A stretch of DNA of 9,212 nucleotides from JBFMHD01 sp040752395 [NCBI: Candidatus Hydrogenedentota bacterium] (GTDB lineage Bacteria; JBFMHD01), in the NCBI GenBank assembly GCA_040752395.1, contig JBFMHD010000110.1, positions 1 through 9,212 of the forward strand. The letters run 5' to 3'. Position 1 is the stretch's first letter; each line of letters starts with the position of its first letter. Shown one piece after another: positions 1 to 9,212 of this stretch. A program made the translations under genes and the position numbers. The notes under the pieces were generated by a model. That model saw only the letters and a program-made list of their open reading frames with translations, was not told where the DNA came from and searched no databases.

Positions 1-20
1 AACTCTAATAATATCAAGTA

Positions 21-118
21 GAAGCAAGAGGCAAGATAACGGAAGAAGTGAGAGGTATCAGGACAGGCTACAGGCTACGGACTACAGCCGGCTGGAGCCA
101 AAAGCCAAAAGCCTGCTG
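21..118 (+). repeat. Long direct repeat, left copy
   Basis: These 98 nt match 9108-9212 in the same orientation. The alignment needs one 7-nt gap (extra TAAGAAG at 9119-9125 in the right copy) and has three substitutions (57 A/G, 107 A/C, 109 A/G). The right copy continues to the last base of the window. Confidence 0.95.
64..115. repeat. Heptad-phased imperfect palindrome (left copy)
   Basis: It is centred on CAGCCGGCTG (85-94), with 26-nt arms that begin CAGGCT and end AGCCTG. Arm units pair heptad against heptad, with mismatches clustered at unit edges. The same palindrome lies at 9158-9209. Confidence 0.7.
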
Positions 119-122
119 AAAA

Positions 123-177
123 GTCTTGAGTCTTGAGTCTCGAGTCTCGAGTCCTGTTTTGACTCACGACTCACGAC
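123..177 (-). terminator. Candidate terminator-like stem-loop after ruvX
   Basis: Arms 123-139 and 161-177 pair at 15 of 17 positions around a 21-nt loop, flanked by GAAAAG (118-123) and CTTTTC (179-184). On the minus strand it lies about 75 nt past the ruvX stop and is followed by only four T residues, so intrinsic termination is possible but weak. The symmetric flanks could serve either direction. Confidence 0.35.
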
Positions 178-197
178 TCTTTTCATATCATCTTTAG

Positions 198-226
198 TTT
201 TTCATCCTTTTGGCCTTTGTGCCTTT
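198..226 (+). repeat. Shared octad block, left copy
   Basis: It begins TTTTTCATCCTTT and continues into CCTTTGTG-type 8-nt units. It matches 8058-8086 at 26 of 29 positions and, as there, follows a heptad stem-loop on the plus strand. Confidence 0.8.
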
Positions 227-250
227 CTCTTCTGTCTCCTGTCTTCTGAA

Positions 251-673
251 TCAACTATGTCGCAAGTTCTTTTCAATATATTCTTTCAGTATGAGGGTTG
301 CTGCTATTTTATCTATCTTCTCTTTTCTTTTTTTTCTTGAGAGACCAACCCTGATAAACATCTCTTCTGCGTTTTGTGTTGAATATTCTTCATCGACGTA
401 TTCTATATCGATCCCTGTTTCTTTATCGATATCATCGCCAATTTTTTCACCAAGTAATGCGGCATAAGATGGTTTTCCTTCGCTGTTTTTAGAATAACCG
501 ATTATTACTTTTTCTACATCGTTAGCTGTTATAATCTCTTTCAATTCTTTAACAAGTGATGCTCTGTCTTTGGATTCAATTATCTTGTAGGGGAATGCAA
601 TCTTTTTATTTTTATCACTTATTGCAACGCCTATTCTTTTCTTACCGGGGTCAATACAAAGTAGTTTACCCAT
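251..673 (-). CDS. ruvX: RuvX/YqgF-family Holliday-junction resolvase-like nuclease
   Basis: Small RNase H-fold protein of the YqgF/RuvX family, which is linked to pre-16S rRNA 5'-end maturation in E. coli and to Holliday-junction resolution by fold. From the ATG at 673 it has 140 residues, matching the family's usual length of about 138-140. Visible hallmarks are the N-terminal strand with D8 in LLCIDPGKKRIGVAISD, the VIIGYSKNSEGK segment (about 57-67), the acidic DEEYST block (94-99) that precedes NAEEMF, and the C-terminal D121 in KIDKIAATLILKEY. Together these give the expected acidic active site. An upstream in-frame TTG at 691 would add six residues, but it has no better ribosome site and makes an atypical N-terminus, so the ATG is preferred. 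This ATG overlaps the alaS stop by 8 nt (ATGGGTAA), and alaS-ruvX adjacency is common in bacteria. It is the last gene of the run; a repeat array starts directly after its stop. Confidence 0.93.
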   Translation of the reverse strand: MGKLLCIDPGKKRIGVAISDKNKKIAFPYKIIESKDRASLVKELKEIITANDVEKVIIGYSKNSEGKPSYAALLGEKIGDDIDKETGIDIEYVDEEYSTQNAEEMFIRVGLSRKKRKEKIDKIAATLILKEYIEKNLRHS

Positions 674-3320
674 TGATTTTTCTATAAACAAATTCTTTTA
701 TTTTGGCTATTGCTTTATCAATATTTTGAGGTTTTCTACCGCCTGCCTGAACAAAATCAGTTCTTCCGCCACCACTGCCATCAATAATCTCTTTTATCCC
801 ATCAATTATTTCTCGTGCATCAATCCTATCAATCAGATTTTTATTTACAAAGATACATACATTACATCTATCATCAAATTTAGAGAAAATAGCGACTATC
901 GAATCTTTTTCTTGAGATTTCAAAACCGCTTCAGTTATGTTTCTTAATTCTCTCTGCTCAACTTTATCTAATCTATTAAAAACAAGGTTGATGGTTTCAT
1001 TAACTTTGTAAATTTCTAATTCATCTTTGTCTCTACGTGTTCTTATTAACACGATTTCATCTTTAAGAGTTTGTAGTTCTTTTTCAAGTTCTTTTACTCT
1101 TTTATTCGTCTTTTGTATTCTATCAACAAGATGCTCTCTGTTAACATTTAATGTTCTTGCAATCTCATCGATATTATTATCCAGTTCTTTTACGTAGTCA
1201 ATAAAAGCATGTCCGCAGACTGCTTCGATCCTGCGAACACCAGAAGCGATGCTGTTCTCTTTTAATATCCAGAACGAACCTATCTCACCGGTACTTCTGC
1301 AATGCGTACCGCCACATAATTCTCTTGAGATATCAGCTATACTTACAACCCTTACTCTGCTACCATATTTTTCCTCAAAAAAAGCAAGCGCCTGTTTTTT
1401 AATAGCTTCCTCTTTATCCATCTCTTTATAACTCACCTCTAAATTATCAATTATCCACTCATTTACAATTTCAATTATTCTTGTGAGTTCTGGTTCATCG
1501 ATGCTTTTATAGTGAGTAAAATCAAACCTTAATCTATCAGGGCCGACATACGAACCTGACTGTTTTATATGAGCGCCCACGACCTTTCTTATGGCTGATT
1601 GCAAAAGATGAGTACAGGAATGATGAGCCATAATCCTTTTTCGTCTTAAAATATCAACTTTTGCCTTTACCTTTCCTTTTTTTTCAATTTCACCTTTTAG
1701 TATTTTCCCATAATGAAGATAAATATTACTCTCTCTTTTTTCTACTTTTTCTACCTTAAATATAAAATTTTCATTTTCAATGATCCCTGTATCGGTTACC
1801 TGTCCACCGGCCTCAGCATAAAATGGTGTTCTATCAAGAATAATAAAACCCTCTTTATCAAGTATATCAACAGGCTCTCTCTCCTTGTTAAGAAGAAATA
1901 ATATATCGGCCTTTTCTTCACAGGATTCGTATCCTGTGAATAGGGTTTGCTGTAAATTATCTTCCCACTCAAATCTTCCAATATCGAGTGTTCCTTTAAA
2001 AGTTCCTTTTGACTTTTCTCTGCTCTTATTCATTTCGTTTTCAAACCCGATTTCGTCAATCGAGAGTCCCTTTTCTCTTGCTATTACACTGGTTAAATCA
2101 GGTGGAAATCCATAGGTATCATACAACTTAAATACAACTTCTCCGTTTATTACCTCCCTGGCCTGTCTTAACGTTTCACTTATTTCTTTATCAAGTATAT
2201 TTAATCCTTCAGTTAGTGTACTCAAAAATTTATCTTCTTCAATATTAACAACTTTTATTATATGTTCTTTCTTTTCTTCTAATTCAGGATATACATCACT
2301 AAATATGAAGCAAAGTTGTGGGATGAGTCTATACAAAACAGGTTTATCAAACCCGAGGCGTTTCGAATGACGTATAGCCCTTCTTATAATTCTTCTTAAA
2401 ACATTTCCCCGCCCCTCGTTTGAAGGTAGCACTCCATCTGCGATAAGAAACCCCATTGCTCTTATATGGTCAGCTATGACTCTTAAACTGACATCAGTAT
2501 CCGGTTCTTCACCATATTTTGTTTTTGAGAACTCTTCCATCTTCTGTATAATCGGGAATAACAAATCGGTTTCGAAGTTACTTTTTTTATGCTGCATAAT
2601 AGCTGCGAGTCGTTCGAGTCCCATCCCTGTATCGATGCTCGGTGCTGGTAAAGGTTTGAGAGTACCGTCCTCTTGCCGATTAAACTGCATAAATACAAGG
2701 TTCCATAATTCAAGAAATCTGTCGCAACTGCAAGCTGGGGAACAACTCTTTTTACCACAACCCACCCTTTCCCCCTGATCGAAATGTATTTCAGAACATG
2801 GTCCACAGGGTCCGGTATTCCCCATTGCCCAGAAATTATTCTCATCGCCTTTTGCTATATCGCCGAGTCTTAATATCCTTTCTTTTCTAAACCCAGCTTT
2901 TTCCCAGCACTCAAAAGCCTCGTCATCATAAGTATAAATACTAATCCATAAATCTTCTTTATCGATACCGAGAATTTTATTTAAGAATTCCAGTGCATAA
3001 GCTATCGCGTCTTGTTTAAAATAATCCCCGAACGAGAAATTACCAAGCATCTCAAAAAAAGTGTGATGTCTTGCGGTATACCCAACGTTCTCAAGGTCAT
3101 TATGTTTGCCGCCAGCCCGAACACATTTCTGACTCGACACAGCCCTCCTGTAATCACGCTTCTCTAACCCTAAAAAAGTAAATTTGAACTGATTCATTCC
3201 GGCATTGGTAAAAAGCAAAGTAGGGTCACCCTGAGGTATAAGAGATGAGCTTTTAACTATTTTGTGGTTATATGATTCAAAATATCTTAAAAAATTTTTT
3301 CTTAAAGTCTCGTGATCCAT
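666..3320 (-). CDS. alaS: Alanine--tRNA ligase (AlaRS), full length
   Basis: Cytoplasmic class II synthetase that charges tRNA-Ala and clears mischarged Ser/Gly. At 884 residues it is a normal full-length bacterial AlaRS (E. coli about 876). The N-terminal catalytic domain spans roughly 1-240, with motif 2 around RAGGKHNDLENVGYTARHHT (69-88) and motif 3 around DTGMGLERLAA (230-240). A cysteine-rich insert (C188, C193, C197, C199) precedes FLELWNLVFMQFNR, as in many bacterial AlaRS. The editing domain follows, with AEAGGQVTDTG (502-512), H567-x3-H571 and C669-GGT-H673 forming the zinc/editing site. After a charged coiled-coil stretch (about 733-768), the C-terminal DHHA1 part holds GSGGGRTDFVQAGG (848-861). 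Every key motif is intact. The ATG at 3320 follows a GAGG-type ribosome site about 7 nt upstream. It lies 36 bp after the HDOD gene and overlaps ruvX, so it belongs to the same run. Confidence 0.99.
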   Translation of the reverse strand: MDHETLRKNFLRYFESYNHKIVKSSSLIPQGDPTLLFTNAGMNQFKFTFLGLEKRDYRRAVSSQKCVRAGGKHNDLENVGYTARHHTFFEMLGNFSFGDYFKQDAIAYALEFLNKILGIDKEDLWISIYTYDDEAFECWEKAGFRKERILRLGDIAKGDENNFWAMGNTGPCGPCSEIHFDQGERVGCGKKSCSPACSCDRFLELWNLVFMQFNRQEDGTLKPLPAPSIDTGMGLERLAAIMQHKKSNFETDLLFPIIQKMEEFSKTKYGEEPDTDVSLRVIADHIRAMGFLIADGVLPSNEGRGNVLRRIIRRAIRHSKRLGFDKPVLYRLIPQLCFIFSDVYPELEEKKEHIIKVVNIEEDKFLSTLTEGLNILDKEISETLRQAREVINGEVVFKLYDTYGFPPDLTSVIAREKGLSIDEIGFENEMNKSREKSKGTFKGTLDIGRFEWEDNLQQTLFTGYESCEEKADILFLLNKEREPVDILDKEGFIILDRTPFYAEAGGQVTDTGIIENENFIFKVEKVEKRESNIYLHYGKILKGEIEKKGKVKAKVDILRRKRIMAHHSCTHLLQSAIRKVVGAHIKQSGSYVGPDRLRFDFTHYKSIDEPELTRIIEIVNEWIIDNLEVSYKEMDKEEAIKKQALAFFEEKYGSRVRVVSIADISRELCGGTHCRSTGEIGSFWILKENSIASGVRRIEAVCGHAFIDYVKELDNNIDEIARTLNVNREHLVDRIQKTNKRVKELEKELQTLKDEIVLIRTRRDKDELEIYKVNETINLVFNRLDKVEQRELRNITEAVLKSQEKDSIVAIFSKFDDRCNVCIFVNKNLIDRIDAREIIDGIKEIIDGSGGGRTDFVQAGGRKPQNIDKAIAKIKEFVYRKING

Positions 3321-3356
3321 TCTCTACCTCGTCCCACCCTATCAGGTTCTACCTCA

Positions 3357-4235
3357 TCATTTCAAAAATTCAAAACTCTTCTCCCAGTCAGATAGTATCT
3401 CTTTACCCTTGGTATAAATTCGCTGGACATCAGAGGTAGACATACCAAGGTTTCTTAAAATATATGAACCTATCTTAACATTCTTTTCAAAAGGAGAAAC
3501 AACATTTAACTTATAACAAATATAATTTGCAATATGAACAAAACAAATCTCTTTGAAATACTCTGATTCAAAAACAGGTGAATGATGGTCCCTTACTACC
3601 TGAACATATAATGCAGGCAATCCCCATTTTTGAAGCAGTCTGCTGCCAAGTATGCCGTGATCAAACCCAAACACGTGTCTTTCTGCCTGATAAAACTCAA
3701 GCCCTTTATCCTCAATAATCGTCTTTATAGTCTGAATATGTTCTTCAACTATTGGTGCAAGCACAAGTTTACCCACGTCGTGCAATAAACCAGTAATAAA
3801 AGCCACTTCCGGGTCTTCAACACCAAATCTTTGAGAGAGTTCCCTTGATAATAAACCGTTGATAACAGAATGTTTCCATAATTCTTCACTTTTATAACCA
3901 TATCCACTAACCTCACCTTTTAATATATTATAAGCACTTGCAGCAAAAACAAGACTGCGTATCGTTCTAAACCCTAAGATTATTATAGCTTGTGAAATGG
4001 TCTTGATCCTGCCTGAAAAACCATAATAAGCAGAATTTGCAATTTTTAAAACATTGGTTGTAAGAGAGACGTCCTGGGCAATCAGATATTGAAGATCAGC
4101 AATTTTTGCTTCCGGGTCATCCAGCATGACCATAATTCTTGATAATATGATAGGTAAACTTGGTATATTTTCAACTTTTGCAAGTATATACTCAAGTAAT
4201 TCTGCACTTTCTGGTGTCAGCTCATAATCTCCCAT
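3357..4235 (-). CDS. HDOD domain protein (HD-related output domain)
   Basis: Stand-alone HDOD-domain protein of 292 residues. These are cytoplasmic signalling or regulatory proteins related to HD phosphohydrolases; their biochemical activity is usually unproven. The HDOD fold covers about 15-225: an N-terminal helical part with IPSLPIILSRIMVML (24-38), IAQDVSLTTNVLKIANSAYYG (52-72) and SQAIIILGFRTIRSL (81-95), then the HD-like part. HD-type residues are unusually well kept: H122 in LWKHS, H152-D153 in GLLHDVGKL, H193 in FDHGILG, and H217/H218 in RDHHSP after KWGLP. It may therefore bind metal, though that is inference. No GGDEF, receiver or membrane segment is fused to it. The ATG at 4235 has a GAGAGG site 8 nt upstream and is preferred over an in-frame TTG at 4253. 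It lies 65 bp after scpB and 36 bp before alaS. The specific role is unknown. Confidence 0.9.
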   Translation of the reverse strand: MGDYELTPESAELLEYILAKVENIPSLPIILSRIMVMLDDPEAKIADLQYLIAQDVSLTTNVLKIANSAYYGFSGRIKTISQAIIILGFRTIRSLVFAASAYNILKGEVSGYGYKSEELWKHSVINGLLSRELSQRFGVEDPEVAFITGLLHDVGKLVLAPIVEEHIQTIKTIIEDKGLEFYQAERHVFGFDHGILGSRLLQKWGLPALYVQVVRDHHSPVFESEYFKEICFVHIANYICYKLNVVSPFEKNVKIGSYILRNLGMSTSDVQRIYTKGKEILSDWEKSFEFLK

Positions 4236-4243
4236 TTTCTTTA

Positions 4244-4251
4244 CCTCTCTC
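4244..4251 (-). promoter_or_regulatory. Shine-Dalgarno site deciding the HDOD gene start
   Basis: Minus-strand GAGAGAGG lies 8 nt before the ATG at 4235. The alternative TTG at 4253 would have no comparable site upstream and would place this one inside the coding region. Confidence 0.7.
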
Positions 4252-4300
4252 AACCCTGCACGCCTTTCTCTCTTTAATAAGATGAAAGCATGGATTAAAT

Positions 4301-4876
4301 TTATAAGTTAAAAATTTTTTGTTCTTGTGGTTCTTGAGTTTCTGATTCTTCCTCTGTTTCAATCATTTCTTCGAGTTCTTTTAAAGTCGGCATATCTTTT
4401 AAGTCTTTTAAACCGAAAACTTTTAAAAATTCATCTGTTGTTCTATATAAGAGCGGTTTACCTGGTTCTTCTTTTCTTCCTGATATCTCAATAAGCCTTT
4501 TATCAAGTAATGTTTTTAAGACACCCTCTGAATTCACTCCTCTGAGATTATCAATCTCTGGTCTTGTTATCGGCTGATTATAAGCAATTATAGCTAAAGT
4601 TTCGAGTCCTGGTCTTGATAATCTAATTTTTTTCTGTATTTTGAAATACTCTCTCAGAACCGGTGCGCAATCAGGCGAAGTCACCATCTGCATTCCGCCT
4701 GCTACCTCTACGATACGCAAACCTCTACTCTGGCTTTCATATTCTTTTTTCAGTTCATTGACAACCTTTTCAATTTCATCTTCATTTTTTTCAAAGAAAG
4801 AAGCGAGTTCTTTTATTTTGAGAGGTTGAGAACTTGCAAAGATTATAGCCTCAACCAACGGTTTTAATTCAGTCAT
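4301..4876 (-). CDS. scpB: Segregation and condensation protein B
   Basis: ScpB is the kite subunit of the SMC-ScpA-ScpB condensin that organises and separates chromosomes. From the ATG at 4876 it has 191 residues, the usual length. The first winged-helix domain starts MTELKPLVEAIIFASSQPL, with GLRIVEVAGGMQMVTSP around 52-68. The second contains LSRPGLETLAIIAYNQPITR (86-105), the family signature, followed by IDNLRGVNSEGVLKTLLDKRLIEISGRKEEPGKPLLYRTT (108-147). The acidic Glu-rich tail (about 168-186) is typical. A longer reading from 4939 would add 21 residues overlapping scpA and lacks family similarity. The ATG at 4876 lies one base past the scpA stop (4878), and its ribosome site sits inside scpA's last codons, implying translational coupling. 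No smc gene is in the window. Confidence 0.97.
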   Translation of the reverse strand: MTELKPLVEAIIFASSQPLKIKELASFFEKNEDEIEKVVNELKKEYESQSRGLRIVEVAGGMQMVTSPDCAPVLREYFKIQKKIRLSRPGLETLAIIAYNQPITRPEIDNLRGVNSEGVLKTLLDKRLIEISGRKEEPGKPLLYRTTDEFLKVFGLKDLKDMPTLKELEEMIETEEESETQEPQEQKIFNL

Positions 4877-4877
4877 T

Positions 4878-5585
4878 TTATATTCCTTTCGTAATCTCAA
4901 TCTCGCCAAATAATTCAGTTTGGACAGCGATAACTTCACCTATTTTTATAAGTTCAAGTAACGCAAGAAACGTAGCTACCAGCATCCTTTTAGAATAAGT
5001 ACCATCAAATAATTCAAGAAACCCGATCTTATTTCGTTGTTTTATAATTTTTCTTATGTGTTCAATCCTGTCTTCAATCTTTATGTCGTCTCGTTCAATC
5101 ACAAGTTTCTGCTTGTTCTTCTTAATCAGTTGAGCAAATGTTTTCAACAGATCAAGCATATCAACGACAAGTAATTCTTCGGTATTTTCAAATTCTTTCT
5201 CTATCCCTATTTCTCCGTGTTCAAATAAGAGTTCGCGTGAGAGTCGCCTGGCATCTAAAAAATCAGCTGCTTCTTTATACTTCTGATACTCGTGTATCAT
5301 ATCAACAAGCTCCTGTCTCGGGTCATCATACGTATCTTCTTCCTCAGAGACAGGCGGTTTAGGTAAAAGCATACGTGACTTTATTCTTAAAAGAGTGGCT
5401 GCCATCGCAATAAAATCACCTGCGATATCGAGATCAAGTTTTTTCATCATCTCAAGATACTCAAGATACTGACTTGTAATCTCTGAGACAGGTATATTCT
5501 GGATATCTACCTCGTTTTTTCTTATAAGATGCAATAATAAATCAAGCGGTCCTTCAAAAATGCTTAACTTAAACTTCAGTTCCAT
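4878..5585 (-). CDS. scpA: Segregation and condensation protein A
   Basis: ScpA is the kleisin subunit that bridges the SMC heads and binds ScpB. Starting at the ATG at 5585 it has 235 residues, normal for the family. The N-terminal SMC-neck-binding part carries the hallmark FKLSIFEGPLDLLLHLI (5-21), then DIQNIPVSEITSQYLEYL (27-44) and the helix DIAGDFIAMAATLLRIKSRMLLP (53-75). The middle is an acidic linker (EEEDTYDD, 81-88). The C-terminal winged helix ends in FLALLELIKIGEVIAVQTELFGEIEI. A longer in-frame reading from 5642 adds 19 residues that overlap the HEPN gene and do not look like ScpA. The start is a TGATG junction: the HEPN stop TGA and the scpA ATG share one base, with AAGGA 9 nt upstream inside the HEPN gene. 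ScpA translation therefore probably depends on reading of the upstream MNT-HEPN pair. Confidence 0.96.
   Translation of the reverse strand: MELKFKLSIFEGPLDLLLHLIRKNEVDIQNIPVSEITSQYLEYLEMMKKLDLDIAGDFIAMAATLLRIKSRMLLPKPPVSEEEDTYDDPRQELVDMIHEYQKYKEAADFLDARRLSRELLFEHGEIGIEKEFENTEELLVVDMLDLLKTFAQLIKKNKQKLVIERDDIKIEDRIEHIRKIIKQRNKIGFLELFDGTYSKRMLVATFLALLELIKIGEVIAVQTELFGEIEITKGI
4883..4889 (-). promoter_or_regulatory. Ribosome-binding site of scpB inside the scpA 3' end
   Basis: Minus-strand AAAGGAA lies about 7 nt before the scpB ATG at 4876 and overlaps the final scpA codons (Lys-Gly-Ile-stop). It fixes the scpB start and argues for coupled translation of the two condensin subunits. Confidence 0.75.
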
Positions 5586-5980
5586 CAAAATTTTTCCTTC
5601 AAACTCTTCTTTATAAGAGCAATCAACTTTCTGACATCCCAAAGGTTATCTTCGATCTCTTTTAAAGTTATCTCTATATCGCTAAAAGGGTATTTTTCTT
5701 CAAAATAATATCCTGTCAATAGTATTGCTAAATCCTGAAATTTCTCAAATCGATTATCATATTTTACTGACTCATCTAATAATTTTTTCAGATTGTGTGT
5801 TTTAACCAATCTCCAACCTTTACTGAGTAAATAACCCTTTAAATATTTTTCTGTTGCTTGCTGCAATAATACCGCGGCTGTATCCGATTGTCCTTTATGT
5901 TTTATAATTAGTTTCACGGTGGCAAGATCATGTTCAGCTTTTACAAACCACTCTTTCGCTTTTATTTTATTGTTCTGCAT
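5585..5980 (-). CDS. HEPN domain protein, partner of the upstream MNT protein (possible RNase toxin)
   Basis: All-helical HEPN-family protein of 131 residues, a full single domain. Recognisable parts are the first helix WFVKAEHDLATVKLII (11-26), the central helix LLQQATEKYLKGYLLSKGW (38-56) and KTHNLKKLLDE (60-70), which is the classical HEPN pattern. R57 and H62 form R-LVKT-H, fitting the R-x4-6-H motif of HEPN ribonucleases. Whether this copy is catalytic is inference. Its start overlaps the MNT gene by 14 nt, the usual arrangement of MNT-HEPN pairs, which work as toxin-antitoxin modules (MntA-HepT, where MNT modifies and silences HEPN) or as uncharacterised nucleotide-binding complexes (HI0073/HI0074 type). 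The ATG at 5980 has a GGGAAAAG purine tract upstream. Its stop overlaps the scpA start, so it sits inside the housekeeping run. There is no membrane segment. Confidence 0.9.
   Translation of the reverse strand: MQNNKIKAKEWFVKAEHDLATVKLIIKHKGQSDTAAVLLQQATEKYLKGYLLSKGWRLVKTHNLKKLLDESVKYDNRFEKFQDLAILLTGYYFEEKYPFSDIEITLKEIEDNLWDVRKLIALIKKSLKEKF
5595..5599 (-). promoter_or_regulatory. Ribosome-binding site of scpA inside the HEPN gene
   Basis: Minus-strand AAGGA ends 9 nt before the scpA ATG at 5585 and lies in the last codons of the HEPN gene. With the TGATG stop/start overlap it selects the short scpA start. Confidence 0.65.
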
Positions 5981-6299
5981 ATAAAACTTTTCCCTTTTCC
6001 AATATCTCTTTTACAAAATCATCTCCGATTTTTAACCTTTTATTAAGTTCATTTTTTGTAAATACTACTGGCTGAATAGCGATACCTTTAATATCACTTA
6101 CTATCTTCATCACCTCACAAAACCGCTCTATCCTCCTTTTATTTGTTTCTTTAATAATAAAGAGGTCAATATCACTCTCTTCTGTTGGATTACCATAAGC
6201 ATAAGAGCCAAAGAGAATAATCTTCTTTGGTCGGTACTTCTGTCGTATTTTTTTTACCAACCTCTGTATTATTAATTCGGTCTCTCTATTATTTGTCAT
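5967..6299 (-). CDS. MNT-type minimal nucleotidyltransferase, HEPN partner
   Basis: Minimal nucleotidyltransferase of the pol-beta superfamily, 110 residues, a normal full-length MNT. The signature is plain: KIILFGSYAYGNPTEESDID has G31-S32, a ten-residue spacer, then D43-x-D45, followed by LFII. In MntA proteins this site transfers AMP to the cognate HEPN toxin. The third carboxylate, usually an Asp in a DVVV-like strand, is not obvious: the matching strand reads IAIQPVVFTKNEL (73-85), with Gln-Pro where Asp is expected. Activity could thus be reduced, or a nearby residue may substitute. The ATG at 6299 lies 6 bp past the trpS stop, with only a weak AGG-like site upstream. Its 3' end overlaps the HEPN start by 14 nt. 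The family assignment is secure; antitoxin function is an inference from pairing. Confidence 0.92.
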   Translation of the reverse strand: MTNNRETELIIQRLVKKIRQKYRPKKIILFGSYAYGNPTEESDIDLFIIKETNKRRIERFCEVMKIVSDIKGIAIQPVVFTKNELNKRLKIGDDFVKEILEKGKVLYAEQ

Positions 6300-6305
6300 A
6301 TATCA

Positions 6306-7283
6306 TCAAATACCTACTTTAATTGTTTGTTTGACTTCATTTAATACAGTTTTTGCCCTCTCTTTTGCTTTTATTTCACCGTTTGTAAAAATAGACTCTG
6401 TATCAATATTTTCTTTTCTTATCCTTCTAAAAGGTTCGAGAAGATTTATCAGTCTGCAACTAAGTTCATTTTTGCACTCAACACAACCTATCTTTGCGCT
6501 TTTGCAGTCTTGTTCAATTATCTGAATTCTATCTTTGAAAAATACTTTATGATACTCAAACACAGAGCATACCTCAGGATGCCCGCAATCACTCCTCTTT
6601 ACTCTCTGCGGGTCGGTTATCATTGATAATATTTTAGTCTTGATGGATTCTTCATTTTCAGCCAGGTCTATAGTATTCCCAAAACTTTTGCTCATCTTTC
6701 GTCCATCAAGCCCGGGTAATCTCGGTATCTTTGTCAATAAAGCAGTTGGTTCAGGAAATATGCTGCAGTTAAATCTATGATGAAACCTTCTTATTATCTC
6801 TCTTGTTATTTCAAGATGTGGTAGCTGGTCTTCACCAACAGGTACATAATTAGCTTTATAGATTATTATATCAGCTGTCTGAAGCAATGGGTAATTTAAA
6901 AACCCGATAGACACCCGTTCTTCTTCTTTTAGCATCTCAAGTTTATCTTTATAAGAAGGGCACCTTGTTAACCATGGAACAGGCGTAATTGATGAGAGTA
7001 TAACAAGAAGCTCGCTATGCTCTGGTATCCTTGATTGTCTGAATATTATACTCTTTTGGGGGTTTATACCATAAGCAAGCCAGTCAAGTAAAATCTCTCT
7101 TGAATATTCATTGATCTCGCTCCAGTCAAAAGTATCAGTCGTAGCATGCCAGTCAGCGATAAAGAAATAGCATTGATACTCTTCTTTTTTTTGTAACATA
7201 AGAAAATTCTCTAAGCCACCTACAAGATGGCCAAGATGTAATCTTCCTGTAGGTCTCATGCCACTTAATACCACTTTCTTCAT
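6306..7283 (-). CDS. trpS: Tryptophan--tRNA ligase, iron-sulfur-cluster type
   Basis: Class I synthetase that charges tRNA-Trp; 325 residues, typical for bacterial TrpRS (about 320-340). The HIGH-equivalent TGRLHLGH is at 12-19, the GEDQ tryptophan/ATP-site motif at 150-153 and KMSKS at 196-200. DWHATTD (44-50) and PLLQTADIIIYKANYVPVG (132-150) also fit. The C-terminal anticodon-binding region has C239, C260, C267 and C270, spaced C-x20-C-x6-C-x2-C. This closely resembles the [4Fe-4S] motif described in Thermotoga maritima TrpRS (C-x22-C-x6-C-x2-C), so a cluster near the anticodon site is likely. The ATG at 7283 follows GGAG by about 8 A residues. It lies 48 bp after the cNMP-binding gene and 6 bp before the MNT gene. 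trpS followed by scpA-scpB is a familiar order; here two extra genes intervene. Confidence 0.98.
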   Translation of the reverse strand: MKKVVLSGMRPTGRLHLGHLVGGLENFLMLQKKEEYQCYFFIADWHATTDTFDWSEINEYSREILLDWLAYGINPQKSIIFRQSRIPEHSELLVILSSITPVPWLTRCPSYKDKLEMLKEEERVSIGFLNYPLLQTADIIIYKANYVPVGEDQLPHLEITREIIRRFHHRFNCSIFPEPTALLTKIPRLPGLDGRKMSKSFGNTIDLAENEESIKTKILSMITDPQRVKRSDCGHPEVCSVFEYHKVFFKDRIQIIEQDCKSAKIGCVECKNELSCRLINLLEPFRRIRKENIDTESIFTNGEIKAKERAKTVLNEVKQTIKVGI

Positions 7284-7331
7284 TTTTTTTCTCCGTTTCC
7301 AGCAGCCATCATTCTTCAGTAACTCGTTTTT

Positions 7332-7967
7332 TTAAAAACATATTAGTTTATACTCTCTTTCAAGATAATGTCTGTAAATATCATAAGCACCATACCCTTT
7401 CATCATTTTATCTATAGGATTCTTGAGGTAATCTTTATCTTTGCCTAAATTATTAAGAGCCTCTAAAAATCTTGTATAGGTTTTTGATGATTTTTCAAAA
7501 CTCCGGCCCTGCCTTGAATAAAAATATTCTTTGGCTGCTATCTTTGCTAAATCAGCTTTTTTATCCCAATCAAGGTTCTCTATAAACTCATCAATACTTA
7601 CAGCTCTATGTTTTTCTTCTAACCGTTTCGTTATTCTTGCGAGGTCATTGGTTGTTATCATTAATCTCTCAGCTAAAGTTTTAGCTAATTTTATTGCGAT
7701 CTCTGGTCTCTGTTTAATAGTAGTTTCGAATTTCTTAGGCGTGATAAAAATTATCTCTGAATCAGATATTGTAACACATGTCGCACTTCTCGGTTTATCC
7801 AATAAATACGACATCTCACCAATAAATGAACCCTCTTCCACAATAAACCCTATATGTTTCCCTCCCTTCATTACCTCAACCCCGCCTTTCTTTAATAAAA
7901 GTATGTCTCTCCCTGTATCACCTTCTCTAAATAAAATACTTCCTTTGGGATATTTCTTAATCTCCAT
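7332..7967 (-). CDS. Cyclic-nucleotide-binding domain protein with an unassigned helical C-terminus
   Basis: Protein of 211 residues whose N-terminal half (about 1-115) is a CRP-type cyclic-nucleotide-binding beta-barrel. Glycine-rich turns at KGSILFREGD and LLLKKGGVEV are followed by the phosphate-binding cassette GSFIGEMSYLLDKPRSATC (46-64). E51 and R60 are kept, so cNMP binding is plausible. A helix follows (PEIAIKLAKTLAERLMITTNDLARITKRLEEKH, 88-120). The C-terminal part (about 120-211) is charged and helical, includes YFYSRQGRSF and YDIYRHYLEREYKLICF, and shows no helix-turn-helix, kinase or membrane domain. It is therefore probably not a CRP/FNR transcription factor; its output is unknown. 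The ATG at 7967 has GAGGG 8 nt upstream, abutting the repeat hairpin that ends at 7981. It appears to open the nine-gene run that continues into trpS. Confidence 0.88.
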   Translation of the reverse strand: MEIKKYPKGSILFREGDTGRDILLLKKGGVEVMKGGKHIGFIVEEGSFIGEMSYLLDKPRSATCVTISDSEIIFITPKKFETTIKQRPEIAIKLAKTLAERLMITTNDLARITKRLEEKHRAVSIDEFIENLDWDKKADLAKIAAKEYFYSRQGRSFEKSSKTYTRFLEALNNLGKDKDYLKNPIDKMMKGYGAYDIYRHYLEREYKLICF

Positions 7968-7980
7968 TCTTTTTTCCCTC

Positions 7981-8063
7981 GAAAAAGTTCGGAGTTCGGA
8001 GCTCGAAGCTCGGATCTATTATTACGAACTCCTAACTTCTAACTCCGAACTCCTATCTTTTTC
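7981..8063 (-). terminator. Candidate stem-loop between mtnP and the cNMP-binding gene
   Basis: Arms 7981-8015 and 8029-8063 pair at about 28 of 35 positions, aligned heptad to heptad around a 13-nt loop. On the minus strand the stem ends in CTTTTTC, a short T tract, so it could terminate mtnP transcripts or stabilise RNA ends. The next gene starts only 13 nt later, which also allows it to be a 5' leader hairpin. Confidence 0.35.
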
Positions 8064-8086
8064 ATCCTTTGTGCCTTTGTGCCTCT
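8058..8086 (+). repeat. Shared octad block, middle copy
   Basis: Partner of 198-226 (26 of 29 identical, first 13 identical). It is part of three consecutive 8-nt units of CCTTTGTG type. Confidence 0.8.
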
Positions 8087-8142
8087 GTGCCTACTCTGAA
8101 AAGTAAGAAGTGGGAAGTGAGAAGTATCATAACTCCTATCTA

Positions 8143-9027
8143 CTATCTCCTAACTCCTTTTCTACAATACTTCTTGATTAGCAATTTCACCTGGTTATAT
8201 TTTTTCGCAGGGAATAGTTTCTGACCCGTCATTATAGCATTTTGTAAAGCTTTTGAACATTCGCAGGTTCTTTCTTTGTCAATGGGTATATATTTCACCA
8301 CATCCTTTATAACCTTTTTTACATTATCAACATTAGAAAGCAAATTAGCTATCACACGTTCAACAGAAACTTCCTCGCCCTCTTTCCAGACATCATAATC
8401 AGTTGCCAGAGCTATTGTTGCAAAACAAATCTCAGCTTCACGCGCAAGTTTTGCCTCTGGCAAATTAGTCATCCCTATAACATCAACTCCCCATGACCTG
8501 TAAATACGTGATTCTGCTTTAGTTGAGAACGATGGTCCATCTATACAAACATAGGTTCCGTTATAATGAGTTGTGATGTTGTTTTCTTTACATACTTTAT
8601 ATAATATCTCTCTCAATTCTTTACAATATGGCTGGGCAAACCCTATGTGAACAACAATCCCATCGCCAAAAAATGTCGATATCCTTGACTTTGTTCTATC
8701 AAAGAGCTGGTCGGGTATAACAAAATCCCTTGGTTTTATCTCTTCTTTCATACTTCCAACCGCTGATACCGATATAATCCATTCAACGCCGAGCTTTTTT
8801 AATACCCAGATATTTGCTCTTGAATTTACCTCGGCCGGTAAAATTCTATGTCCGCGTCCGTGTCTTGGTAAAAATGCAACCCTCCTATCATTTAATGTCC
8901 CTATCATAATACTATCAGAGGGATTCCCGAACGGTGTCTTTATTTTCTTCTCTGTTACATCTTTTATACCCTCTATCTCATATAACCCACTACCACCAAT
9001 TACTCCGATAAGTCTCTCGTTAGCCAT
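8143..9027 (-). CDS. mtnP: S-methyl-5'-thioadenosine phosphorylase (MTAP)
   Basis: Phosphorolysis of methylthioadenosine to adenine and methylthioribose-1-phosphate, a step of methionine and purine salvage from polyamine and SAM metabolism. It has 294 residues, the usual length. Features include the phosphate loop IGVIGGSGLYEI (7-18), LPRHGRGHRILPAEVNSRAN (53-72), SVSAVGSMKEEIKPRDFVIP (87-106), GPSFSTKAESR (164-174), GMTNLPEAKLAREAE (185-199) and TDYDVW (209-214). The adenine-specific Asp pair in TDYD points to MTAP rather than a 6-oxopurine phosphorylase. C255-x-C257 matches the C-terminal CXC motif described for some thermophile MTAPs. The ATG at 9027 has AAAGGGGG 6 nt upstream and is favoured over GTG at 9030, whose spacing would be 3 nt. 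It is separated from the downstream run by a repeat array. Its last codons (Arg-Lys-Gly-Val-Arg-Arg-stop) lie inside that array. Confidence 0.96.
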   Translation of the reverse strand: MANERLIGVIGGSGLYEIEGIKDVTEKKIKTPFGNPSDSIMIGTLNDRRVAFLPRHGRGHRILPAEVNSRANIWVLKKLGVEWIISVSAVGSMKEEIKPRDFVIPDQLFDRTKSRISTFFGDGIVVHIGFAQPYCKELREILYKVCKENNITTHYNGTYVCIDGPSFSTKAESRIYRSWGVDVIGMTNLPEAKLAREAEICFATIALATDYDVWKEGEEVSVERVIANLLSNVDNVKKVIKDVVKYIPIDKERTCECSKALQNAIMTGQKLFPAKKYNQVKLLIKKYCRKGVRR

Positions 9028-9033
9028 CACAGA

Positions 9034-9041
9034 CCCCCTTT
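9034..9041 (-). promoter_or_regulatory. Shine-Dalgarno site of mtnP
   Basis: Minus-strand AAAGGGGG ends 6 nt before the ATG at 9027, good spacing for that codon and too close for the GTG at 9030. It sits directly against the edge of the upstream repeat array. Confidence 0.7.
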
Positions 9042-9212
9042 GAAAAAGTAAGAAGTATCAAAAAATAGAAGCAAGAAGCAAGATAACGGAAAAGAAAGAT
9101 AACGAAAGAAGCAAGAGGTAAGAAGCAAGATAACGGAAGAAGTGAGAGGTGTCAGGACAGGCTACAGGCTACGGACTACAGCCGGCTGGAGCCAAAAGCC
9201 CAGAGCCTGCTG
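9042..9212. repeat. Heptad repeat array upstream of mtnP, reaching the window end
   Basis: It opens with GAAAAAG TAAGAAG, like the middle array, and runs as mostly 7-nt purine-rich units (AGCAAGA twice at 9070-9083), with some phase slips around 9084-9104. GAAGCAAGATAACGGA occurs at both 9075-9090 and 9122-9137. From 9108 it is the right copy of the long direct repeat. No gene is seen, and the promoter of mtnP, if local, must lie in or beyond this array. Confidence 0.85.
9108..9212 (+). repeat. Long direct repeat, right copy (cut by the window end)
   Basis: These 105 nt match 21-118 apart from one extra heptad and three substitutions, and contain the palindrome at 9158-9209. The match is still running at the last base, so the true repeat may be longer. 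Confidence 0.95.

What the first reader, a model, noticed from the sequence alone, without database searches (positions are those of the whole stretch)
14..181. Long, continuous 7-nt periodicity without a fixed unit sequence
About 24 consecutive heptads can be laid end to end. The unit drifts from purine-rich, to ACAGGCT-like, to CCAAAAG, to TTGAGTC, to GACTCAC, while the 7-nt step is held. Ordinary tandem repeats keep one unit; here the period is kept and the unit changes, with neighbours often duplicated in pairs. Heptanucleotide repeats (STRR) are known in filamentous cyanobacteria, but those keep defined units. Something seems to select or copy in 7-nt steps.
Basis: partly seen in the sequence, partly recalled or inferred. 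Interest (0 to 1): 0.65.

Follow-up and report, generated by a model that had tools for sequence, protein, structure and literature searches.

The report
Intergenic hairpins with seven-base-repeat arms
The stretch is a row of short seven-base repeats sitting between genes; its changing unit comes from separate repeat blocks set side by side, some of them facing each other as the two arms of hairpins, which makes it a variant of a repeat type already known in bacteria.

Summary
The 7-nt periodicity is real: lag-7 identity at 14-181 is 0.58 against 0.25 in shuffles (0 of 5000 reach it). It is not one drifting array. Four clean blocks (lag-7 identity 0.94) meet at junctions with none (0.19), beside a degenerate purine-rich stretch (0.52). 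All three long gaps between genes carry such blocks; coding windows of 251-7967 do not reach their values. Neighbouring blocks tend to be reverse complements; two pairs fold as strong hairpins (122-179, 7986-8055), each between GAAAA(A)G and CTTTT(T)C. Part of the cluster recurs at 9118-9212 (90 of 95 identical), so both window ends lie in one repeat. In IMG/VR contigs 32 of 54 neighbouring heptad pairs are complementary, 4 of 54 direct; in a cyanobacterial plasmid 1 of 38. Best reading: 7-nt slippage at the DNA level expands both arms of intergenic, terminator-like hairpins. Heptanucleotide repeats as a class, inverted heptamer pairs in Xanthomonas (PMC4692102) and heptad-armed stems in the Nostoc trnL intron (PMC4476775) are in print. 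A variant of a known kind. Host not identified; function untested.

The parts
20..62 (.). A: degenerate purine-rich heptads (GAAGCAA, GAGGCAA, ...)
   Evidence: lag-7 identity 0.52 for 14-62, 29 of 10,000 shuffles reach it
63..87 (.). B: ACAGGCT block, 3.6 copies
   Evidence: TRF
96..113 (.). B': AGCCAAA block; GGCT/AGCC core pairs with B
   Evidence: TRF; fold of 60-118, minus strand z -2.96, plus strand z -1.59; unit match as reverse complement 4 of 7, equal to the direct match
118..184 (.). C module: GAAAAG, arm AGTCTTG/AGTCTCG (122-153), loop, arm GACTCAC (161-179), CTTTTC
   Evidence: rc match 6 of 7; flanks; minus strand -27.8 kcal/mol, z -3.27; plus strand -25.4, z -2.90
198..226 (.). 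TTTTTCATCCTTT...CCTTTGTGCCT module (8-nt unit), also at about 8058-8086
   Evidence: alignment A2
228..248 (.). A': TCTTCTG block; two bases separate it from the ruvX stop codon (251-253, minus strand)
   Evidence: TRF; ORF 251..691
7981..8063 (.). D module: GAAAAAG, arm AGTTCGG (7986-8012), loop, arm AACTCCT (8027-8055), CTTTTTC
   Evidence: rc 6 of 7; minus strand -41.5 kcal/mol, z -7.12; plus -32.6, z -5.75
8066..8092 (.). CCTTTGTG array, 8-nt period
   Evidence: TRF
8098..8162 (.). F module: GAAAAG, heptads AAGTGAG (8101-8125), heptads TAACTCC (8127-8158), CTTTTC; pairing at chance level; overlaps the end of mtnP
   Evidence: (rc 5); folds z -0.07 and -0.55; mtnP ORF 8143..9030
9042..9212 (.). 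Second copy of the cluster upstream of mtnP, cut by the window end; 9118-9212 matches 24-118 at 90 of 95

Best explanation
The stretch is an intergenic cluster of short heptanucleotide blocks, by its gene neighbours on a bacterial chromosome, and part of a repeat that lies at both ends of the window. Shown: period 7, blocks confined to the gaps between genes (one reaches into the end of mtnP), abrupt junctions, and neighbouring blocks that tend to be reverse complements. Two block pairs (C, D) make good hairpins; a third (B) is moderate and a fourth (F) is not better than chance. C, D and F are each bracketed by GAAAA(A)G and CTTTT(T)C, the layout of a two-way intrinsic terminator. Inferred: short intergenic inverted repeats were the founders, and replication slippage or small tandem duplication in 7-nt steps expanded each arm on its own. 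Finished clusters were then copied to other gaps. In transcripts the hairpins may end transcription or mark the 3' ends of the operons; that role is a guess.
For: Lag-7 excess; block structure and junctions. Adjacent blocks in the window: mean reverse-complement unit match 4.75 of 7, direct 3.38, scrambled-unit null 3.79 sd 0.24, fraction 0.0001 of 20,000 scrambles (8 pairs). The same arrangement in IMG/VR contigs: 54 distinct pairs, reverse complement at 6 or 7 of 7 in 32, direct in 4, mean 5.31 against null 3.97 sd 0.10; counting only pairs free of the search patterns, 24 of 40 against 2 of 40. DNA-level, independent expansion of arms: heptad order not matched between arms (0 of 43 at p 0.05 or less; 11 of the 43 have arms too uniform for the test to say anything), arm lengths uncorrelated (rho 0.19, p 0.23, n 41), no sense-strand advantage in folding in the IMG/VR-plus-window set (sense better in 11 of 24, Wilcoxon p 0.35). 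Slippage is measured for this unit elsewhere: AAGACTC of neuO, 93% of one strain with 21 repeats, 1.92% with 20, 5.35% with 22 (PMC13001214, passages); the CUS-3 record annotates 19 copies. Folding of modules. Flanks: all 5 GAAAA+G of the plus strand lie in the heptad gaps.
Against: The window's own genome is not held, so copy number and other arrays could not be counted. The two copies in the window do not show a clear 7-nt step: a gapped alignment scores 84.5, an ungapped one 84.0, and 352 of 2000 heptad-order shuffles do as well. A/T flanks are not general: of 41 IMG/VR hairpins 6 have a T-run after, 2 an A-run before, 0 both, against a background of 3.0% and 3.5% per 15 nt. The terminator scan of the window is at the chance level, 6 found against 4.7 expected, 1 of the 6 in the C block. 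The inverted pairing is absent in Kovacikia, 1 of 38. In the window only 2 of 8 neighbouring pairs match at 6 of 7. The minus (gene) strand folds better in 4 of 4 modules, which would fit a role in RNA better than a pure DNA process, though for 14-250 as a whole the plus strand is slightly the better (-79.3 against -77.5). In IMG/VR pairs the direct match too lies a little above its null (3.28 against 2.96).
Confidence: 0.6

Rival explanations
1. Neutral slippage only: any intergenic DNA in this genome gains 7-nt tandem duplications, different units come to lie side by side, and the hairpins have no meaning.
For: Kovacikia shows just that: 38 neighbouring array pairs lie within 150 bp, 1 of 38 reverse complementary and 2 of 38 direct at 6 or more of 7, and no shared phase in 27 close pairs.
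Against: Reverse-complement excess in the window and in IMG/VR contigs; the GAAAAG/CTTTTC frames.
Confidence: 0.25
2. Selected RNA hairpins: the arms are kept complementary because the transcript's hairpin acts as terminator, end protection or translation insulator.
For: The minus strand, the strand of the predicted genes, folds better in B, C, D and F (4 of 4); flanking A/T tracts; in the Nostoc trnL intron heptad arms do form an RNA stem (PMC3488679, PMC4476775, passages).
Against: No sense-strand advantage in the wider set, 11 of 24; for 14-250 as a whole plus is slightly the better strand; no heptad-by-heptad match of arms; no Rfam family matches the window at the gathering score.
Confidence: 0.3
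3. A non-autonomous mobile element (REP, MITE or small dispersed repeat) that carries the heptads with it.
For: Near-identical 95-nt copy at the other end of the window; shared octad module in a second gap; in Geobacter metallireducens an element with four heptanucleotide repeats occurs in 49 places (PMC2700814, passages).
Against: The edges of the copies could not be fixed because the window ends inside them; I noticed no transposase among the families found and did not search for target-site duplications; the array pairs of phage contig L010 mostly have different units at each place.
Confidence: 0.2
4. Assembly or sequencing artefact.
For: Both ends of the window lie in the same repeat, as when assembly stops at repeats.
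Against: Copies differ at 5 of 95 positions; the third gap, 7968-8142, lies well inside the window.
Confidence: 0.03

Closest known systems
Heptanucleotide simple sequence repeats of prokaryotes (Mrazek 2007, known here only through passages of PMC4679880 and PMC4692102)
   Same: Intergenic, period 7, head to tail, patchy between genomes; polymerase slippage proposed as the cause
   Different: Here several short blocks with different, partly complementary units are set side by side
Inverted pairs of GGGAATC heptamer arrays in Xanthomonas (PMC4692102, passages read: 70 cases in one genome, 75 in another)
   Same: Two heptad arrays in convergent orientation close together; array length varies while the pair type is usually kept
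   Different: The paper follows one G-rich unit able to form quadruplexes; here several unit families stand in 9 kb
P6b stem of the Nostoc trnL(UAA) intron (PMC3488679, PMC4476775, passages read)
   Same: The stem is built of degenerate heptanucleotide repeats that pair with each other; the class II motif NNTGAGT also fits the C block (CTTGAGT)
   Different: There one fixed place inside a group I intron; here intergenic, at several places, with many units
neuO repeat of prophage CUS-3 in E. coli K1 (AAGACTC)
   Same: Same heptanucleotide as the C block, read on the other strand; slippage in steps of 7 measured
   Different: Inside a coding sequence, long and uniform, acts in phase variation
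Heptanucleotide multicopy elements of Geobacter metallireducens (PMC2700814, passages read)
   Same: Dispersed elements, intergenic for a part, made of four or five heptads
   Different: One consensus per family; proposed there as regulatory RNA elements or regulator binding sites

Membership tests
Prokaryotic heptanucleotide simple sequence repeats | Head-to-tail 7-nt units beyond chance | tested here: met
Prokaryotic heptanucleotide simple sequence repeats | One unit per array | tested here: met
   Met block by block (0.94 inside, 0.19 at junctions), not for 14-181 as a whole
Cyanobacterial STRR families | Named fixed units of filamentous cyanobacteria | not tested
   Unit lists were not to hand; one search was seen as a listing only
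Inverted heptamer pairs (Xanthomonas type) | Neighbouring arrays are reverse complements | tested here: met
   Met for C and D, 6 of 7; mean over 8 pairs 4.75 against null 3.79; B (4) and F (5) do not reach 6
Nostoc trnL P6b heptad stem | Lies in a group I intron of trnL | tested here: not met
   No Rfam match at the gathering score in the window; neighbours are ruvX, a CRP-like gene and mtnP
Intrinsic transcription terminator | GC-rich stem followed at once by a T-run | tested here: inconclusive
   A four- or five-T run closes C, D and F on both strands, but the scan lists 6 sites against 4.7 by chance, 1 of them in the C block
REP/MITE-type mobile repeat | Defined ends, target duplication, many copies | tested here: inconclusive
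   One second copy, cut off by the window end; no genome held; target duplications not searched for

The most novel reading that the evidence does not exclude
Heptad-armed hairpins are a general intergenic structure of bacteria and their phages, with a different unit at each place, made by a replication process that copies 7 nt at a time into both arms of an existing inverted repeat. The number 7 would then report a property of the polymerase or of the repair system, not of any sequence.
Probability: 0.25. Interest if true: 0.6.

Novelty: new variant of a known kind. Interest (0 to 1): 0.4.

Why it matters
Why seven is the favoured step of long simple repeats in bacteria is a question raised in print (the slippage proposal cited in PMC4679880 and PMC4692102, passages). 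The hairpin arrangement gives a handle: the phage contig stretch L010 carries six facing pairs of heptad arrays in 6.6 kb, so step size, arm coupling and strand effects can be measured on many independent cases. It also corrects the picture of a single drifting array.

Tried and rejected
Own genome: not held. AlaRS scan of genome contigs: 3 loci, 40-43% identity, so host and near relatives stay unknown. BLAST of 1-260: 1 weak plasmid match and 2 phages, both matching part of 122-181, one of them at the annotated neuO repeat. BLAST of 7960-8170: 6 plasmids with short matches. Rfam: no match at the gathering score. One heptad gained between the two copies: not supported. Phase kept across junctions in Kovacikia: not supported. 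Arms copied heptad by heptad: not supported. Sense-strand RNA pairing in the wider set: not supported. The window's unit as a special sequence: not supported; in 247 genomes of the phylum of G003 the pattern GAGTCTY (three copies) occurs in 2 and the same pattern read backwards in 8; AACTCCT triplets in 3 of 247, read backwards in 1; in 60 genomes of the phylum of G001 the first pattern occurs in 0, read backwards in 0. These two phyla were chosen only because their handles were at hand, and their names (Bacteroidota, Spirochaetota) are taken from record titles. Gene calls are crude ORF calls. Rows dropped before counts: duplicate pairs by their first 20 letters; low-complexity arrays in the array counts; only complementary pairs (5 or more of 7, above the direct match, gap at most 80) were kept, 43 in all including 2 of the window, of which 24 had same-strand neighbours for the strand test, 9 lay inside an ORF, 8 had neighbours on different strands and 2 lay at an edge. 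The 84 IMG/VR loci are not all independent: two come from one contig and some are near-copies; array totals (243) were not freed of duplicates, pair counts were.

Full report
What was checked. The window is 9212 bases long. The genes that I take as real all lie on the minus strand: ruvX, alaS, an HD-domain (HDIG) gene, scpB, scpA, an unassigned small gene beside a nucleotidyltransferase gene (MntA-like, below the curated cut-off), trpS, a CRP-like gene (below cut-off) and mtnP (alaS by my reading, no family search was run on it). The finding lies downstream of ruvX. Its lag-7 identity, 0.584, is far above shuffles (0.255, sd 0.035; 0 of 5000). The three long gaps between genes (1-250, 7968-8142, 9031-9212) have lag-7 identities of 0.54, 0.51 and 0.51, and 0 of 747, 755 and 754 windows of equal length from 251-7967 reach them. 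So the period is real and sits in the gaps, apart from one block that reaches into the end of mtnP.

Anatomy. The 168 bases are not one array. Inside the four arrays found by TRF, lag-7 identity is 0.94; across junctions it is 0.19; in the purine-rich part it is 0.52. The blocks from left to right are A (purine-rich), B (ACAGGCT), B' (AGCCAAA), C (AGTCTTG/AGTCTCG), C' (GACTCAC), and after a stretch with an 8-nt unit A' (TCTTCTG). The gap at 7968-8142 has D (AGTTCGG), D' (AACTCCT), an octad array (CCTTTGTG), and F (AAGTGAG) with F' (TAACTCC). Over the 8 neighbouring block pairs of the window the mean best match of units is 4.75 of 7 as reverse complement, 3.38 direct and 3.79 (sd 0.24) for scrambled units; 0.0001 of 20,000 scrambles reach 4.75. 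Only 2 of the 8 pairs match at 6 of 7, namely C and D.

Folding. C and D fold better than shuffles on both strands (z -2.9 and -3.3; -5.8 and -7.1). B is moderate (z -1.6 and -3.0). F is at chance (z -0.1 and -0.6). The minus strand, which is the gene strand, is the more stable in 4 of 4 modules; for 14-250 as a whole the plus strand is slightly ahead (-79.3 against -77.5), for 7976-8165 the minus strand (-57.4 against -47.2). C, D and F each begin with GAAAAG or GAAAAAG and end with CTTTTC or CTTTTTC. The plus strand of the window holds 5 matches to GAAAA+G, all in the heptad gaps, and 28 to CTTTT+C. This is the layout of a two-way intrinsic terminator, but the terminator scan of the window is at chance (6 against 4.7, 1 of the 6 in the C block).

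Dispersal. Positions 24-118 recur at 9118-9212 with 90 of 95 identical (alignment). The window therefore begins and ends in the same repeat, which probably is where assembly stopped (inference). An alignment with one 7-nt gap is no better than one without (84.5 against 84.0; 352 of 2000 heptad-order shuffles do as well), so the copies do not prove a step of 7. The octad module occurs in two gaps.

Other genomes. The window's genome is not held, and an AlaRS scan found only distant relatives (42, 40 and 43% identity). Comparison therefore rests on what could be reached. In 900 kb of a Kovacikia minuta plasmid (of 1208 kb), strict arrays number 73 at lag 7 and 0 to 4 at each of lags 4-6 and 8-13, with 53 at lag 14 as the harmonic; 40 of the 73 lie outside long ORFs, in the 17% of bases that such ORFs leave free. 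In 319 kb sampled from the phylum of G001, lag 7 gives 1 and lag 9 gives 3, so period 7 is not favoured in every genome. In Kovacikia 38 array pairs lie within 150 bp; 1 of 38 is complementary at 6 or more of 7, 2 of 38 direct, and random unit pairs give 3.6% and 3.4%. In 27 pairs at most 30 bp apart phase is not carried over. So in this cyanobacterium different heptads sit side by side without inversion.

Hairpins in viral contigs. Six short patterns made from window units brought in 84 IMG/VR loci, 730 kb. They hold 243 lag-7 arrays and 54 distinct neighbouring pairs. Of these, 32 of 54 are complementary at 6 or more of 7 and 4 of 54 direct; the mean is 5.31 against a scrambled null of 3.97, sd 0.10; the direct match, 3.28, also lies a little above its null of 2.96. 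The loci were chosen for a repeat, so arrays are over-represented, but inversion was not chosen for: among the 40 pairs without a search pattern 24 are complementary, on 13 loci, and 2 direct. L010 comes from a phage contig (major head protein, phrog_1005, E 8e-42). It shows six facing pairs of heptad arrays; 5 of them enter the count, each at 6 of 7, and the repeat finder reports 4 of the 6 places as inverted repeats.

What the arms say about mechanism. If arms were kept paired by selection on RNA, the sense strand should fold better: it does in 11 of 24. If one arm were copied from the other heptad by heptad, their order should match: 0 of 43 are significant, though 11 of the 43 have arms too uniform to tell. 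Arm lengths are uncorrelated (rho 0.19, p 0.23, n 41). This favours short inverted founders whose arms then grew on their own, at the DNA level. A/T flanks are not a general trait of these hairpins (6 of 41 T-run, 2 of 41 A-run, 0 of 41 both; background 3.0% and 3.5%). The window's own 4 of 4 minus-strand preference points the other way and is too small to decide.

What is known. [quoted passage not shown] the paper itself was not seen). The exact unit AAGACTC slips in the neuO gene of E. coli K1: in one strain 93% had 21 repeats, 1.92% 20 and 5.35% 22 (PMC13001214, passages). Inverted pairs of heptamer arrays are reported in Xanthomonas, 70 and 75 cases, with only a few in Nostoc (PMC4692102, passages), a contrast like that between the IMG/VR contigs and Kovacikia here. 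Stems of paired degenerate heptads are known in the Nostoc trnL intron (PMC3488679 and PMC4476775, passages). Dispersed heptanucleotide elements are reported in Geobacter metallireducens (PMC2700814, passages). PMC4060949 (passages) mentions template switching as a source of inverted repeats and weak repair of longer loops. In the listings (titles and starts of abstracts) I saw no paper on heptad-armed hairpins as a general or phage feature; of the listed papers I opened passages of PMC4679880, PMC4692102 and PMC2700814 only, and the library lacks most subscription journals.

Verdict. The stretch is a variant of a known kind: heptanucleotide blocks arranged in part as intergenic hairpins. The occurrence of such hairpins with changing units in many viral contigs is the part most worth following.

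Noticed in passing
8127-8158: The mtnP stop codon (8143-8145) lies inside the TAACTCC block, so the last residues of the predicted protein are encoded by heptads.
   Followed up: partly
198-226 and about 8058-8092: An 8-nt unit CCTTTGTG after TTTTTCATCC stands next to heptad blocks in two gaps; IMG/VR contigs hold drifting octads of the same kind, for example L037.
   Followed up: partly
L010:1651-5837: Phage contig with six facing pairs of heptad arrays, most with another unit, near structural genes; read on the minus strand, one stands just before a likely ribosome-binding site and ATG.
   Followed up: partly
L088, L091, L092: Genome G220 has arrays with core GAGTC and variable last bases (GAGTCTT, GAGTCGT, GAGTCAT in L088; GACTCAC in L091 and L092), including the variants of the two C arms of the window.
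   Followed up: no
genomes (no window coordinates): The search pattern read backwards occurs in 8 of 247 genomes and the pattern itself in 2 of 247, so other heptads are commoner there.
   Followed up: no
5585-6299: A small pair of genes, one unassigned and one MntA-like nucleotidyltransferase (below cut-off), stands between scpA and trpS and looks like a HEPN/MNT toxin-antitoxin pair (the HEPN label is recalled, not from a call).
   Followed up: no
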